This document shows, one piece after another, positions 27,869 to 33,046 of a DNA stretch of 64,000 nucleotides. Position numbers and translations under genes: made by a program. How positions within the stretch are numbered: position 1 is the first letter of the stretch; every line of letters starts with the position of its first letter. The stretch is from Gemmatimonadaceae bacterium (GTDB lineage Bacteria; Gemmatimonadota; Gemmatimonadetes; Gemmatimonadales; Gemmatimonadaceae). The notes beneath the pieces were generated by a model. That model did not search any database. It was not told the origin of the DNA and saw only the letters and a program-made list of their open reading frames with translations. The DNA lies in assembly GCA_036273715.1 (NCBI GenBank), contig DASUHB010000029.1, positions 1 to 64,000 on the forward strand, in the 5' to 3' direction.

Positions 27869-27964
27869 CGGACGGCCGGGGCGGTGTGACGCCGCGCTGC
27901 CGCCCGCCGTCAATCGAGAATGGTTTTCGTCTTCCCTTCCCACACCGAGCGCTGGTCTCTTTCT

Positions 27965-29923
27965 ATGCGTGTGCTGGCTGCCGTGGTCGCGGTGTCGTTC
28001 GTCGCTCTGTCCGCCGGCGCGCAGGCGCCGCACATCACCCCGGCGGGCGATCCGTCGGTGAAGAGCGATACCATTTATTCGCTGGCGGTGCCGGCCGGCT
28101 CGCACACCGATGAGCCGTACGTGCTCCTGCTCGATGACGGCGTGGTGAAGATCGAGCCGGACGGGCGCCTGACGACGACGTATCGGCAGGTGGTGCAGAT
28201 CCTCACGCAGGAGGCCGCCGAGCGATGGGGCGAGCATACGTTCAGCTACTCGGCTGGCCGCGAGAAGCTGACCGTGAACTGGATTCGCGTGCTGAAGCCG
28301 AACGGCGAGGTGGTGAGCGAGAAGCCGACGCACGAGCAGGAGTCGCTGGCGCCGGTCTCGCTCGATGCGCCCGTGTATTCCGATCTCAAGCTGCACCGGG
28401 TCACGTTAGGCGGGGTCGCGCCGGGCACGCTGATCGACTACAGCGTGACCACGGAGACGGCGAGCCCGCTGATTCCGAGCGATTTTTTGACATCGTGGAG
28501 CGTGCAGACCGGGGTGTTCACGCGCCGGTCGCGGTACATGGTGGACGTGCCGGCGAATTACACGCCGCGCATCGAAGAGCACCACATTCCGTTCAAGCGC
28601 GCGGAGCATGTGTCCAACGGGCGCCGCGTGATCACGTGGGCGGCGCAGGACGTACCGAAGCCGGAGCCGGAGCCGCTGGCGCCGGACTCGTCGTACGGCG
28701 AATCGCTGACGATCGCGGCGCCGCGCACGTGGAGCGACGTGGCGCACTGGTACGCGGGTCTGGCGCGCGACCGCTACACGACCACCCCGGCCATCGACGC
28801 CAAGATCGCCGAGGTAGTGAAGAACGCGAAGACGCTCGACGACTCGATCCGCGCGGTGCACCGCTGGGTGGCCCAGGACTTCCGCTACGTGTCCCTGTCG
28901 TTAGGCATCGGCGGGTACCAGCCGCACCAGCCGGAGTCGATGTTCGAGAACAAATACGGCGACTGCAAGGACAAGGCGACGTTCTTCATCGCCGCGATGC
29001 GCCGGTTAGGCGTGACCGCGTACCCGGTGCTGCTGAGCGCCGACGGCGGCGTGGATCCGTCGTTGCCGAGCGCGCACCAGTTCGACCACATGATCGCGGC
29101 GGTCAAGCGCGCCGATGGGCGGTACACGTACGTCGATCTGACGGCGGACCTCGCGCCGTATGGTGCGCTGCCGCCGGGCGAGCCGGGCGAATTCGGGCTG
29201 GTGGTGCATCCCGATGGCACGAGCGAAGAAATCACGTTCCCGATGGACTCGGCGGCGCGCAACCTGTCGCGCGTCGACATCGACGGGTCGCTGTCGCCGG
29301 ACGGGCTGTTCGCCGGCAAATGGATGCGGACGGCGACCGGGCTGCAGCAGTACGGTCTGCGGAGCTCGATGTCGCGGTCGACGCAAATGGATTCGACGCA
29401 GCGTGCGCGCGCGACGCTGGCGATTGCCAACGCGATCATCCAGGGCGCCACGGGCGACAGCCTGCAGGTGTTCGACGGCCGCGACCTGAGCGCGAAACCG
29501 CGCATTTCGGTGCGGCTCTCCAACGGCAAGATGGTGAGCGACGCCGGCGCGACGAAGATTCTGACGCTGCCGATTCGCGACTTTGCCGTGCCTAACGTCG
29601 TCGCGTCACTCGAGCAGCGCGGTCCGCGCGTGAATCCGATCGACATCGAGAAGGTGTGGGGGCCGCACGAGGAGCTCGAGGACTTCGAGGTGACGCTGCC
29701 CCGAGGGTGGAAGGCGCAGCTGCCCAAGTCGCTGACCGAGTCGAGCGCGTTCGGCACGTACACGGCGAAATACGAACAGGATGGTGACACGCTGCACGTG
29801 TCGCGCTCGCTCGTGGGGGACACCGGGGTGCAGCCGGCGAGCGCGATGCCCGCGCTCATCGCATGGCTCAAGGCGATGTCGGCGGACGACGTGAAGTACA
29901 TCGTGATCAACGCGGGGAGCTGA
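27965..29923 (+). CDS. Secreted DUF3857 and transglutaminase-domain protein
   Basis: A 652-residue exported protein (signal peptide about 1-20, cleaved at SAGAQA). A DUF3857 domain (about 55-220) is followed by a transglutaminase-like core, where the triad is visible as Cys in KYGDCKDKATFF, His in HQFDHMIAAV and Asp in YVDLTADLAPYG. A C-terminal beta domain ends with the common EEL(E)DFEVTLPRGW segment. Proteins of this layout are frequent in Bacteroidota, Acidobacteriota and Gemmatimonadota. The substrate is unknown. It is probably cotranscribed with the M16 peptidase. Confidence 0.9.
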   Translation: MRVLAAVVAVSFVALSAGAQAPHITPAGDPSVKSDTIYSLAVPAGSHTDEPYVLLLDDGVVKIEPDGRLTTTYRQVVQILTQEAAERWGEHTFSYSAGREKLTVNWIRVLKPNGEVVSEKPTHEQESLAPVSLDAPVYSDLKLHRVTLGGVAPGTLIDYSVTTETASPLIPSDFLTSWSVQTGVFTRRSRYMVDVPANYTPRIEEHHIPFKRAEHVSNGRRVITWAAQDVPKPEPEPLAPDSSYGESLTIAAPRTWSDVAHWYAGLARDRYTTTPAIDAKIAEVVKNAKTLDDSIRAVHRWVAQDFRYVSLSLGIGGYQPHQPESMFENKYGDCKDKATFFIAAMRRLGVTAYPVLLSADGGVDPSLPSAHQFDHMIAAVKRADGRYTYVDLTADLAPYGALPPGEPGEFGLVVHPDGTSEEITFPMDSAARNLSRVDIDGSLSPDGLFAGKWMRTATGLQQYGLRSSMSRSTQMDSTQRARATLAIANAIIQGATGDSLQVFDGRDLSAKPRISVRLSNGKMVSDAGATKILTLPIRDFAVPNVVASLEQRGPRVNPIDIEKVWGPHEELEDFEVTLPRGWKAQLPKSLTESSAFGTYTAKYEQDGDTLHVSRSLVGDTGVQPASAMPALIAWLKAMSADDVKYIVINAGS

Positions 29924-30064
29924 CCGGCAACGATTGGTACCGCGTGCCGGTTCTCCGATGACGGCACGAGGGTGGGGTGAGCGTACGATGTTCGCGCGCG
30001 GTCGATCGACCGCCACGAGCACCGTACGCTCGTTTGTTCCCCACGCTTCATCGAGGTGGCCGTC

Positions 30065-32608
30065 ATGCACACCATTCATCGGTGCCTGTCCATCGTCGCG
30101 ATCATCGCGGTCGCGGGCGCGTGCTCGGATCCGATAGCCGGTCCGTCGCGAAAACCACGTTCAGACATCACGTCGCCAGCGCCCGCTGCCGAGCAGGTGG
30201 TCTTTCTTCCACCGCTCGGCACCGGCGGCATGCCGAGGGGGGCATCGGACGTGTCGCGCCAGGTGGTGTTGGAGGTGTGCGTGCGGGCGGATACGGCGTG
30301 TGTCGGAGCGGCCATCGCGCGAATCGATACGGCGGCCGGCCTGCGGGTGGTGGGTGACGCGCAGGTCGCGGAGGCGGGGCGAGCGACCTATGAGGCGGTG
30401 TGGCGCGTGCCGCGTGCAATGGGCGAGAGCGGCGCGAGCCTCCGGCTGCGGGTGATCGTCGACGGCTCGGAGCTCGGCCATCTGGACCTGCGCGTTCGCG
30501 GCACGCGCGACGGGAGTGATTCCGTCTGGTCGCCTAACGGAAGGATGGTCAGTCCGGACGCGGCGCTGCCGATTCGATTCTGGATCCAGCGGCCGCCGCG
30601 CCGGTTCACGGTGCTCGTCGGGCCGGGAGTGCGCGGCGATCCGGGTGCGTCGGATTCGTTGTGGACGTACGGGACGCGGGTGCCATATGCGTTCGCCGCG
30701 GCGGCGGGTTACGAGAACGTGCTGGTGCGGTTGGACGGGATGCCGGCAACGCAGACGGGTGTGGTGGTGACCGACACGGAGCACGTGCTAACGGTGACAG
30801 CGGATCGGCACGTCGTGTTGGGCAGTGCTGCTCTCCCGTTGTATGCGCTGGCGCGGGCGGTGTTGACCTCGGCGGATCCGGTCGGGGCGTACCAGGCGTA
30901 TCTCGATATGGCGTCGGCGTACGTGGGGTCTTCGGGGCGCGGAGCCGAGGAGTCATTGCGGGATGTACGCGACGTGGAGTTTCTCGCCTTCGATCCGATC
31001 CGCGACTCGGCTGCCTTACGGAGAGTGGATGGGGCGTTGGCGGGGCATCTCTTCAGCACGGGCGAAACGACGCCGAACTTGACGTCTGCGCGCGTGGCAG
31101 TTCCGCGATCATCCGTTCGTGGCTTGGATGCGTTAGACGCGACGGACAGCACCGAGCAGACGGCCTTTGTGTACGTGAACGGAATCGCGACACCACAGCT
31201 CGGACCACAAGGCGCAATTGCTACTCAGTTCGAGCTTCGGAACATCGTTTCCGAAATTTCCTTGTTTCGCGGCAACGACGATTTCGACGTCAAGCTGTTC
31301 TACAACCGCACCTACAGTGAACAGCGCCCATCGCCGGAGCAACAACGCGCGCACTGCGTGTCGCTATTTGCAGCGCGTCTCGCGTTCGGTTATGTGGGCG
31401 TCAATTCGCTCGCGTCGTTCATGGAGAAATGCACGTCCGATCAGACATTTCGGCGCTTCTCGGATCACGATCTCCTGGAATGCATTCGCCAAATGTGGAC
31501 GATCGTTGCGAATACCGATGGCGCCGAAGTCGACGCTGTTGCTCTCGCATCTCGGATTCAGGAGTTACGTGTAGCCGGCACCCATGTGATCCTCGTGCCA
31601 CATTCGCAGGGCAACCTGATGGCCAATCAAGCAATTCATCGCCTACACTCGGTCACTCACGAATTCGATCCAACGAGCGATTCGACCTGCATTGGACTGG
31701 TATCACTCGCCTCACCAACGAGCCATCGTTGGGAGTTATCCGAGCACTACATTGCTCCGATTGTCGTACGCGGCGATGTTGTTCCACTGATAGACAACGA
31801 ATGGGAACCCATCGACACCGACCTTTCAGAAGAGTTGCTCGATCATCCATCTATTGCGACGCTCTTCAAGCCAACGGGCATCCTGCTGCACCAAGTGCTC
31901 GAAAGCTACCTTCTTCAGCCTCAATCGCGGGCCGCGATACGGGCCGGGCTCGAGAACGTGTATCGCGCCTGCAGCGTGGCGAGCCTCGTAATCCGGCCGA
32001 CGTCGGTCACCCTCTCGGTCGGAGCGGCAACGACCCTTACTGCCGGCGCCTTGAATGCATTCGGGGATACGTTAGGCGGGCGGTCAGTGTCTTGGACGAG
32101 CACCACACCAACGGTCGTATCGGTCACGCCGATCGGCGCACTCTCTGCGACAGCTCGTGGTGTCGGCCCAGGAGGTGGATCCATCGTCGCACACCGCTCA
32201 AATCGTCGCGCGGAGTCAGCAGTGTCGGTCTTCAATCCTGTTCCGCAGGAAGATCCGTTCACCTTTACGTACATCGCTTCGTATCAAGAAGGCTTTCTCG
32301 GTGACGATCAGCACTTGAGCGGCACGGTCGCTCACCCCGGTGCCGTGCCGCTCCCTGCTGGTACTCTTAGACTCTCATTCACAAGGCAGTTCGGACGTAT
32401 CAGTGCCGCTGTAAATAACTCGCTCTACACGGTCAGCACGATCGGAACAGACTCCGTTATCCTTGGCGGCAACCCCGGCTCATCGTATCGGCTCGGGTGG
32501 AACGAGGACCACACAAAGCTGTCTGGTCGCTTCGATACCTTACAGTGGATTTTTGGTGTGGGTTTTGTACAAGCAGCACTGCCAGTGACGTTCGAGCGAC
32601 AGCAGTAA
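30065..32608 (+). CDS. Large lipoprotein with serine-hydrolase-like motif and Ig-like (Big2) domain
   Basis: An 847-residue putative lipoprotein (signal then AVAGAC at about residue 20). Residues about 30-300 are beta-rich and unrecognised. Around residue 515 is HVILVPHSQGNLMANQAI, a nucleophile-elbow-like HSQG seen in lipase/esterase folds, with PTSHRW and DVVPL further on. A bacterial Ig-like group 2 domain follows (about 640-725, with SVTLSVGAATTLTAGA and VSWTSTTPTVVSV), then a C-terminal domain of about 115 residues. GC content falls from about 68 to about 53 percent near 31150, inside the gene. ATG 30065 has GAGG upstream. Hydrolase activity is unproven. Confidence 0.7.
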   Translation: MHTIHRCLSIVAIIAVAGACSDPIAGPSRKPRSDITSPAPAAEQVVFLPPLGTGGMPRGASDVSRQVVLEVCVRADTACVGAAIARIDTAAGLRVVGDAQVAEAGRATYEAVWRVPRAMGESGASLRLRVIVDGSELGHLDLRVRGTRDGSDSVWSPNGRMVSPDAALPIRFWIQRPPRRFTVLVGPGVRGDPGASDSLWTYGTRVPYAFAAAAGYENVLVRLDGMPATQTGVVVTDTEHVLTVTADRHVVLGSAALPLYALARAVLTSADPVGAYQAYLDMASAYVGSSGRGAEESLRDVRDVEFLAFDPIRDSAALRRVDGALAGHLFSTGETTPNLTSARVAVPRSSVRGLDALDATDSTEQTAFVYVNGIATPQLGPQGAIATQFELRNIVSEISLFRGNDDFDVKLFYNRTYSEQRPSPEQQRAHCVSLFAARLAFGYVGVNSLASFMEKCTSDQTFRRFSDHDLLECIRQMWTIVANTDGAEVDAVALASRIQELRVAGTHVILVPHSQGNLMANQAIHRLHSVTHEFDPTSDSTCIGLVSLASPTSHRWELSEHYIAPIVVRGDVVPLIDNEWEPIDTDLSEELLDHPSIATLFKPTGILLHQVLESYLLQPQSRAAIRAGLENVYRACSVASLVIRPTSVTLSVGAATTLTAGALNAFGDTLGGRSVSWTSTTPTVVSVTPIGALSATARGVGPGGGSIVAHRSNRRAESAVSVFNPVPQEDPFTFTYIASYQEGFLGDDQHLSGTVAHPGAVPLPAGTLRLSFTRQFGRISAAVNNSLYTVSTIGTDSVILGGNPGSSYRLGWNEDHTKLSGRFDTLQWIFGVGFVQAALPVTFERQQ

Positions 32609-32611
32609 AGC

Positions 32612-33046
32612 GTGGGAAGGCCATTAATTCGATCGATTATTGGCACAGCGGCGCTGTGCATCGTGGCGAGCGCCTGCAGGCGCCCGCCACGAAACAGCGT
32701 GCATTCGGTGCCGCAAAGCGTGACCCGCTACCCGCATGCAACCGACAGATTCGTGAACTTGGTGCGTCAGCAACTCACTTCTCGCGATCCTGTCGTAGTC
32801 GAACAAGAAATCATGTGCGAGGGAGTGCGGATTTCTCGTGTACTAGGCGATGCCGAAACGTCGATACGCATCAGGTCCGCGCTAGACACGGCATACGTTC
32901 GCCGTATCGATAGCTTGGCGTTTCGCCGTGTTGCTCAGGCACTGGAGGGGCACATGCTCGGCACCGGCGGCCACGTGTGCGATTCGCTCATCGCAGCCGC
33001 CGACAGCGTCGATCCGATTGTTGCGGTTAGGCAGCGCGCGCCGTAG
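32612..33046 (+). CDS. Small putative lipoprotein, unknown
   Basis: A 144-residue protein directly after the large lipoprotein gene (three bases after its stop), starting with GTG at 32612. The N-terminus has a signal with CIVASAC as possible lipobox (Cys about 22). The mature part is helical with two further Cys (ICEG-type MCEG and HVCD). No family recognised. It shares the lower GC content of the upstream gene's 3' half, so the two probably arrived together. It is convergent with the esterase gene, with four bases between the stops. Confidence 0.6.
   Translation: MGRPLIRSIIGTAALCIVASACRRPPRNSVHSVPQSVTRYPHATDRFVNLVRQQLTSRDPVVVEQEIMCEGVRISRVLGDAETSIRIRSALDTAYVRRIDSLAFRRVAQALEGHMLGTGGHVCDSLIAAADSVDPIVAVRQRAP

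What the first reader, a model, noticed from the sequence alone, without database searches (positions are those of the whole stretch)
31150..33046. Abrupt GC drop inside a lipoprotein gene
The first about 1.1 kb of the gene at 30065-32608 reads near 68 percent GC in 60-base rows, while rows from about 31200 on are near 52-55 percent and the following small gene is similar. The step coincides with the start of the hydrolase-like and Ig-like part, suggesting a host-type N-terminus joined to an acquired module, or a hot spot of exchange of C-terminal effector domains. The downstream small lipoprotein could be its partner or immunity-type protein (speculative).
Basis: partly seen in the sequence, partly recalled or inferred. 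Interest (0 to 1): 0.5.

Follow-up and report, generated by a model that had tools for sequence, protein, structure and literature searches.

The report
Lipoprotein hydrolase and its helical partner
A sharp drop in GC inside a soil-bacterium enzyme gene is real, but it follows an old domain boundary rather than a recent splice, and the small gene next door turns out to be a free-standing relative of the helical domain just before the enzyme part.

Summary
The GC step is real: best change point 31108, GC 0.686 before and 0.570 after; third-position GC 0.80 to 0.62. It is the largest within-gene step of the 28 genes tested in the window. It lies at the linker between a helical domain and a cutinase-like alpha/beta-hydrolase domain.

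It is probably not a host N-terminus joined to an acquired C-terminus. Full-length homologues with the same domain order exist in relatives. The helical-hydrolase join recurs in 16 of 18 hydrolase-matching frames examined, and amino-acid distances of both halves and a flanking gene scale together. About half of the step is protein composition. The synonymous part is confined to one sub-clade of the genus.

The unexpected result: the small downstream lipoprotein is homologous to that helical domain. Free forms have two cysteines (14 of 14); embedded forms none (0 of 16). The pair is adjacent in three different arrangements. My best reading is an exported lipoprotein esterase with a cis helical module and a trans copy that caps or chaperones it. 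That function is inferred, not shown. Organism: most likely an uncultivated Gemmatimonadaceae bacterium.

The parts
30065..32608 (+). Lipoprotein alpha/beta-hydrolase gene, 847 aa
   Evidence: ORF list; full-length homologues in same genus; Pfam weak Big_2 and DUF676
30065..30124 (+). Signal peptide ending in a lipobox-like ...AGAC, Cys20 (lipobox recalled, not run through a predictor)
   Evidence: Sequence, alignment A1
30170..30604 (+). N1: beta-rich N-terminal domain, the variable module of the family
   Evidence: Beta strands in the model; profile A6 absent from some hydrolase homologues
30596..30802 (+). Small beta domain, residues 178-246 (InlB-repeat-like by eye, recalled)
   Evidence: strands; pilin rows for residues 177-250, Z about 6, too low to lean on
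30803..31099 (+). Helical domain, residues 247-345, homologous to the small downstream lipoprotein; no cysteine
   Evidence: Helices 254-325 in model; BLASTP 5e-6; hhalign 1.1e-5; Cys count
31094..31135 (+). Disordered linker and composition change point (GC 31108; GC3 codon 344)
   Evidence: pLDDT below 50 at 334-362
31127..31969 (+). Alpha/beta-hydrolase domain, residues 355-635; candidate triad Ser514 (31604-31606), Asp571 (31775-31777), His609 (31889-31891)
   Evidence: VIA-align cutinase Z 12.8, 3.6 A, 182 residues; conserved columns; residue numbers; triad assignment inferred
31976..32161 (+). Big_2 Ig-like domain, residues 638-699
   Evidence: Pfam E 7.5e-4, below curated cut-off in this protein; 7 of 9 homologues match, best 4.6e-9
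32252..32605 (+). C-terminal beta-rich part
   Evidence: Low-confidence model; little aligned identity to G003 and G034 there
32612..33046 (+). Small helical lipoprotein, 144 aa, free form of the helical domain with Cys69 and Cys123; starts 3 nt after the hydrolase stop

Best explanation
The feature is an old two-gene unit, not a recent splice. Gene 1 is an exported lipoprotein: variable beta domain, small beta domain, four-helix domain, flexible linker, cutinase-like alpha/beta hydrolase, Ig-like domain. Gene 2 is a lipoprotein made of the same kind of helical domain alone, with two conserved cysteines. Shown: the homology, the domain order, the cysteine split, the adjacency in three arrangements. 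Inferred: the hydrolase is an active esterase or lipase outside the cytoplasm; the embedded helical domain packs on or steers the catalytic domain; and the free copy acts in trans on the same site as a cap (inhibitor) or steric chaperone, made in step with the enzyme by translational coupling. The GC step follows the domain boundary because (a) the hydrolase protein needs more A+T-rich codons and (b) in this sub-clade the hydrolase half and the small gene have lost the G-ending codon bias of their upstream neighbours. The cause of (b), relaxed codon selection or low local recombination, is inferred.
For: Domain order and synteny. Amino-acid share of the step: with the window's average codon use, protein composition alone predicts 0.705 to 0.643, observed 0.686 to 0.571; GC at positions 1+2 falls 0.63 to 0.55 also in G002 and G003. 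Synonymous share confined to window, G004, G005, G001. Amino-acid distance ratios to the flanking M16 gene are steady, worked out: C-half 1.33, 1.41, 1.35 and N-half 1.78, 1.82, 1.65 against G005, G001, G002. Window-lineage third-position changes in the C-half: 13 toward A/T, 2 toward G/C, the opposite of amelioration. Homology of small gene to helical domain; profile of free forms hits embedded domains at 5.9e-11 (G228), 7e-11 (G257), 1.3e-7 (window). Free forms 14 of 14 with two Cys, embedded 0 of 16; one branch separates them, support 88/94. Adjacency: downstream in window, G004, G001, G005, G002, divergent in G003, upstream in G257 (free-form profile built without it, E 4.6e-8). Stop and start overlap in G001 (TGATG) and lie 3 nt apart in the window and G004. 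Genus-level co-occurrence: 9 and 7 genera of 138, 4 shared, hypergeometric 2.8e-4, post hoc. Hydrolase fold.
Against: No experiment shows activity or contact between the two proteins, and no complex was modelled. Pairing is not universal: for the hydrolases of G034, G069, G210, G313, G220, G056, G355, G188 and G374 no free copy is listed (G313 has a weak 54-residue match, E 0.004), and for the free copies in G155, G386 and G340 no hydrolase is listed. Both calls score only the best few candidates per genome. In G215 both are present but on different contigs, both internal. G228's pair is split over contig ends, so it is only compatible with adjacency. Four-fold-site divergence of the C-half against G001 and G005 (0.71, 0.66) is above the N-half (0.50, 0.47) and the flanking genes (0.35-0.48), though equal to the N-half against G004 (0.17 and 0.17); old replacement is not excluded. 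The A/T-ward excess is also seen in flanking genes (window lineage M16 16 to 3, DUF3857 9 to 2, FSH1 7 to 2) and not in G004's C-half (2 to 3). In G003 the GC3 change lies at the same junction but with the opposite sign (0.73 to 0.90). The full-length model is mediocre (mean pLDDT 63.7).
Confidence: 0.43

Rival explanations
1. Acquired module: a host-type N-terminus was joined to a foreign low-GC hydrolase at about 31150, or this is a hot spot where C-terminal effector domains are exchanged.
For: The step is real and coincides with the hydrolase start. G003 shows a change of opposite sign at the same junction.
Against: The same helical-hydrolase join is found in other genera and in another family of the class. 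Amino-acid distances of the two halves scale together with M16. Half of the step is amino-acid composition. It is the N1 domain, not the C-terminal half, that is unmatched in several homologues. No match in the phage collection.
Confidence: 0.06
2. Old allelic replacement: in the ancestor of the window, G004, G005 and G001, the stretch from the linker through the small gene was replaced by homologous recombination with a lower-GC version of the same genes.
For: GC3 step present in that sub-clade and absent in G002; C-half and small gene share the low GC3 and few G-ending codons; elevated four-fold divergence there.
Against: Steady distance ratios to M16, also against G002; drift toward A/T instead of recovery in the window lineage; no donor found.
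Confidence: 0.22
3. Toxin and immunity: the hydrolase is an antibacterial phospholipase and the small lipoprotein protects the producer, as for Tle3/Tli3 or TslA/TilA.
For: Alpha/beta-hydrolase beside a small lipoprotein; weak Tle3 profile match in one of 9 homologues (E 0.013). Abstracts of PMC10730906 and PMC9860674 describe such pairs.
Against: The enzyme appears to carry its own lipoprotein signal and no delivery domain was matched; the small protein is homologous to part of the enzyme, while Tli3 is described as a new fold of stacked beta-sheets (abstract); several hydrolases have no free copy listed.
Confidence: 0.12
4. No functional link: the free helical lipoprotein is an independent family whose neighbour position is inherited by chance, and its shared ancestry with the embedded domain is ancient history.
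For: Free copies without a listed hydrolase in G155, G386, G340; hydrolases without a listed free copy in nine genomes; non-adjacent in G215.
Against: Adjacency in three different arrangements; genus-level co-occurrence; tight start-stop spacing.
Confidence: 0.25

Closest known systems
SUB1-ProM, stand-alone propeptide-like inhibitor of the subtilase SUB1 (PMC6993865; abstract read)
   Same: A free protein related to a domain that precedes a catalytic domain, encoded beside the enzyme gene.
   Different: Protease, eukaryote; there the propeptide is cut off and inhibition is measured. Here no cleavage or inhibition is known, the enzyme is an esterase-like hydrolase, and both look like lipoproteins.
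Lipase-specific foldase LipH/Lif with LipA (PMC13381987; abstract read)
   Same: Membrane-anchored partner of an exported alpha/beta-hydrolase.
   Different: No Lif profile was listed for the small protein in Pfam; LipA carries no domain related to its foldase (recalled); here the enzyme carries a relative of the partner's domain.
Tle3/Tli3 T6SS phospholipase and immunity lipoprotein (PMC9860674; abstract read)
   Same: Alpha/beta-hydrolase and cognate small lipoprotein.
   Different: Tli3 is beta-rich and its loop enters the catalytic crevice (abstract); Tle3 has no lipoprotein signal (recalled); no T6SS delivery domain was matched here.
TslA/TlaA/TilA type VII lipase toxin (PMC10730906; abstract read)
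   Same: Lipase with a helical domain, small helical partners and a lipoprotein partner.
   Different: Gram-positive T7SS, helical domain at the C-terminus, two kinds of partner.
Cutinase and carboxylesterase folds (1cub, 1auo)
   Same: Fold of residues about 329-640, Z 12.8 and 10.7.
   Different: Sequence identity 14%; no Pfam hydrolase family reaches its cut-off in the window protein.

Membership tests
Alpha/beta-hydrolase superfamily | Alpha/beta-hydrolase fold | tested here: met
   VIA-align against cutinase 1cub Z 12.8, rmsd 3.6 A, 182 aligned; the first 50 Foldseek rows for the whole model were Ig-type chains
Alpha/beta-hydrolase superfamily | Nucleophile elbow with Ser, then Asp and His in order | tested here: met
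   HSQGN, D and H invariant in all 8 rows of A4; Ser514, Asp571, His609; catalysis itself not tested
DUF676 / Lipase_3 / DUF900 / Tle3 (Pfam) | Score above curated cut-off | tested here: not met
   DUF676 14.3 of 20.3 bits in the window protein; Lipase_3, DUF900 and Tle3 below cut-off where shown in homologues
Lipase-specific foldase (Lif, Pfam Lipase_chap as recalled) | Profile match of the small protein | tested here: not met
   Only DUF6420 at E 0.049 was listed up to E 1
Lipase-specific foldase (Lif) | Needed in trans for folding of the hydrolase | not testable with these tools
   Needs expression with and without the small protein
Stand-alone propeptide-like inhibitor | Free protein homologous to a domain N-terminal to the catalytic domain | tested here: met
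Stand-alone propeptide-like inhibitor | Inhibits the enzyme; cis domain is a cleaved propeptide | not testable with these tools
   No assay; no cleavage site tested
Toxin-immunity lipoprotein pair (Tle/Tli) | Delivery by a secretion system and neutralisation by the partner | not testable with these tools
   No delivery domain matched; PADLOC only E 0.027 for the small protein
Recently acquired C-terminal module | Junction absent from vertical homologues | tested here: not met
   Junction present across genera
Bacterial lipoprotein | Signal peptide with lipobox cysteine | tested here: inconclusive
   Cys20 in the large protein and Cys22 in the small after hydrophobic stretches, with a Cys there in most aligned homologues; position -3 is often not the classical residue; no predictor run

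The most novel reading that the evidence does not exclude
The helical domain defines a new class of hydrolase-controlling module: in cis it gates an exported esterase, and a cysteine-tied copy on its own lipid anchor competes for the same site in trans, so that the ratio of the two lipoproteins sets enzyme activity. It would be a bacterial lipase counterpart of propeptide-like inhibitors, and free tandem copies (G386) would control other enzymes.
Probability: 0.2. Interest if true: 0.55.

Novelty: new variant of a known kind. Interest (0 to 1): 0.3.

Why it matters
It shows that an abrupt GC step inside one gene need not mark a recent transfer: here about half of it is protein composition and the rest is sub-clade-specific codon usage in a gene that otherwise travels with its neighbours. 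It also brings out a helical domain family in Gemmatimonadota that no library searched here names, with a clean free/embedded split marked by two cysteines, and gives a directly testable enzyme-partner pair.

Tried and rejected
Considered and rejected: a junction between two foreign pieces at 31150 (full-length homologues). Mobile-element or phage cargo: no match of the large protein in the phage collection. Recent duplication of the domain into the small gene: rejected, because free and embedded forms split deep on the tree. Amelioration of foreign DNA: polarised changes run the other way in the window lineage (13 to 2), with small counts, 15 further changes unassigned, and no such excess in G004 (2 toward A/T, 3 toward G/C).

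Led nowhere: Foldseek with the whole large model listed Ig-type chains in its first 50 rows; the small model's best PDB match had E 3.8, which shows neither a new nor a known fold. NCBIfam gave nothing for the window protein at E 0.1. PDB sequences gave Big_2-type and weak matches. PADLOC gave only a weak match (E 0.027) for the small protein. A first tree held one row in the wrong frame, G155; I rebuilt it with the right frame and use only the second. In one search the YdjC row of G002 was in the wrong frame and is not used. Paper searches showed nothing on this family in the listings seen; 83 and 84 were the ones aimed at hydrolase-lipoprotein pairs, and I claim no wider absence.

Rows dropped or limited: the free-form alignment A7 has 13 rows and leaves out the G003 fragment, the broken middle G386 copy and G024. 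The tree has 30 rows. One search examined frames from the loci then held; hydrolase matches in G188 and G374 were not fetched at length, so their helical domain was not looked for. Of its 16 frames with both profiles, six supplied the rows of the helical profile, and two frames (G005) are pieces of one gene. The co-occurrence count used genera with a free form except g20 (G024); it is post hoc, genera are not independent, and I take to have drawn the same 395 genomes, which the outputs suggest but do not state. Weak free-form matches in G094, G096, G118 and G313 (E 0.002-0.008) were not followed.
Full report
WHAT IS THERE. The window lies in a 4.34-Mb draft genome, contig C29. The near relatives whose records carry names are Gemmatimonadaceae or Gemmatimonadetes metagenome genomes. 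The gene at 30065-32608 encodes 847 aa with a signal peptide and Cys20; the gene at 32612-33046 encodes 144 aa with a signal peptide and Cys22. From the model, the profile matches and the structure comparison the large protein reads: signal; N1 beta domain (about 36-177); small beta domain (178-246); helical domain (247-345); disordered linker (334-362); alpha/beta hydrolase (355-635, cutinase-like, Z 12.8); Big_2 Ig-like domain (638-699); C-terminal beta part. The candidate triad is Ser514, Asp571, His609; HSQGN, the Asp and the His are invariant in the eight rows compared.

THE GC STEP IS REAL. GC falls from 0.686 to 0.570 with the best change point at 31108. GC3 falls from 0.80 to 0.62 at codon 344, reached by 0 of 300 permutations. 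It is the largest within-gene step of 28 window genes of at least 260 codons (0.119; next 0.096). The C-half GC3 of 0.623 lies below all 49 other called genes (mean 0.818, SD 0.052, minimum 0.673). The Ig-like stretch is less low (0.64) than the hydrolase (0.55).

WHERE THE STEP COMES FROM. First, protein composition: with the window's average codon usage the two halves are expected at 0.705 and 0.643, about half of the observed step. In agreement, GC at codon positions 1 and 2 drops by 0.05 to 0.10 in all six genus members, including G002 (0.627 to 0.556) and G003 (0.631 to 0.547), whose GC3 shows no such drop. Second, synonymous usage: GC3 goes 0.80 to 0.62 in the window, 0.80 to 0.67 in G004, 0.77 to 0.65 in G001, and in G005 0.80 to 0.72 (first 67 codons) and 0.64 (the other piece); it is nearly level in G002 (0.785 to 0.763) and rises in G003 (0.75 to 0.90). 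The permutation test agrees: G004 0 of 300, G001 1 of 300, G002 213 of 300, G034 110 of 300; in G003 the change is significant (0 of 300), at the same junction and of opposite sign. In the window the loss is of G-ending codons (0.51 to 0.27) and not of C-ending ones (0.29 to 0.35). In the window lineage, polarised against G005, C-half third-position changes are 13 toward A/T and 2 toward G/C, 15 changes being unassignable; in G004 they are 2 and 3. The flanking genes also lean toward A/T in the window lineage (M16 16 to 3, DUF3857 9 to 2, FSH1 7 to 2). A stretch already at GC3 0.62 that still leans this way is not returning to host composition, but the counts are small.

INHERITANCE. The M16 and DUF3857 genes upstream and the FSH1, YdjC-like, GT2 and CFA-like genes downstream flank the pair in G001 and G002. 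G005's two contig pieces show the same set, and G004's short pieces show M16, DUF3857 and FSH1. Amino-acid distances from the window to G005, G001 and G002 are 0.24, 0.31, 0.42 for the C-half, 0.32, 0.40, 0.51 for the N-half and 0.18, 0.22, 0.31 for M16, so the ratios are steady. Against this reading, four-fold divergence in the C-half to G001 and G005 (0.71, 0.66) exceeds the N-half (0.50, 0.47) and the flanking genes (0.35-0.48), while against the close G004 the halves are equal (0.172, 0.166). An old replacement of the C-half plus small gene in the sub-clade ancestor is therefore kept as a rival.

THE JUNCTION IS OLD. Hydrolase homologues were found in 16 of 395 genomes of the phylum sample at E 1e-8. 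Of the 18 frames that match the hydrolase profile in the loci I then held, 16 also match the helical profile just before it; six of these supplied the profile itself, the other ten did not. The two exceptions are a G005 piece that starts inside the hydrolase and G056, where the free-form profile later hit the expected place. The N1 domain is the part that comes and goes: its profile missed G003, G228, G215, G220, G056 and one G257 copy. Planctomycetota relatives of the hydrolase show no helical match at E 0.01.

GENE-LEVEL GAIN. In G003 the M16 gene and the FSH1 gene lie about 60 bp apart with no DUF3857, hydrolase or small gene between them, no DUF3857 homologue was found at E 1e-30, and its hydrolase lies on another contig. 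In the 12-kb stretches of G155, G006 and G033 the homologue of window gene 21722 lies 4-5 kb from FSH1 without an M16 match. So a three-gene block was probably gained at this place inside the genus, or lost from G003; its left edge is about 27.9 kb, not the GC step. Polarity is not proven.

THE SMALL GENE IS RELATED TO THE HELICAL DOMAIN. BLASTP of the two window proteins gives 38% over 72 residues, E 5e-6 for this one comparison; in whole-genome searches the same match is weak (E 0.13 and 0.005). Profile against profile gives E 1.1e-5; the free-form profile hits embedded domains at 5.9e-11 in G228, 7e-11 in G257 and 1.3e-7 in the window. Free forms have Cys69 and Cys123 in 13 of 13 rows and two cysteines in 14 of 14 domain segments, embedded forms none in 16 of 16; one branch separates the groups, support 88/94, which is moderate. 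G324 and G024 carry an intermediate form, the small beta domain plus helical domain without hydrolase and with both cysteines. G386 has three copies in a row, the middle one broken.

PAIRING. The free gene is directly downstream in the window, G004, G001, G005 and G002, divergently upstream in G003 (a 30-residue fragment at a contig end, E 5e-6), and directly upstream on the same strand in G257, another family of the class. In G228 both lie at contig ends. In G215 they are not adjacent. By genus, hydrolase 9 and free form 7 of 138, 4 shared, hypergeometric 2.8e-4, post hoc. Counter-cases are listed under evidence against.

MECHANISM. I think the embedded helical domain steers or covers the hydrolase and the free copy acts on the same surface in trans, as inhibitor or chaperone. 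The nearest parallel I found is SUB1-ProM, a stand-alone propeptide-like inhibitor encoded near its enzyme (PMC6993865, abstract). Every functional step is inferred. The linker of low confidence between the two domains fits a tethered module but proves nothing.

VERDICT. Interest is moderate: the composition part is ordinary, the domain pair is a new variant of a known kind.

Noticed in passing
window 27870-33046; L152 5961-6025: G003 of the same genus has M16 and FSH1 about 60 bp apart: an empty site for the three-gene block DUF3857, hydrolase, small lipoprotein.
   Followed up: partly
L084 4604-5809: G386 has three free helical lipoprotein copies in a row, the middle one broken by a stop beside an unknown base.
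   Followed up: no
L089 4943-5638; L117 5131-5910: Stand-alone proteins of small beta domain plus helical domain, both cysteines, no hydrolase.
   Followed up: partly
L013 (G003), codons near the hydrolase start: GC3 step at the same junction but upward, 0.73 to 0.90; unexplained.
   Followed up: no
G003 genome: 17 matches at E 1e-30 to the window's M16-type peptidase in one 3.8-Mb draft, some of them partial and perhaps pieces of one gene: an expanded family.
   Followed up: no
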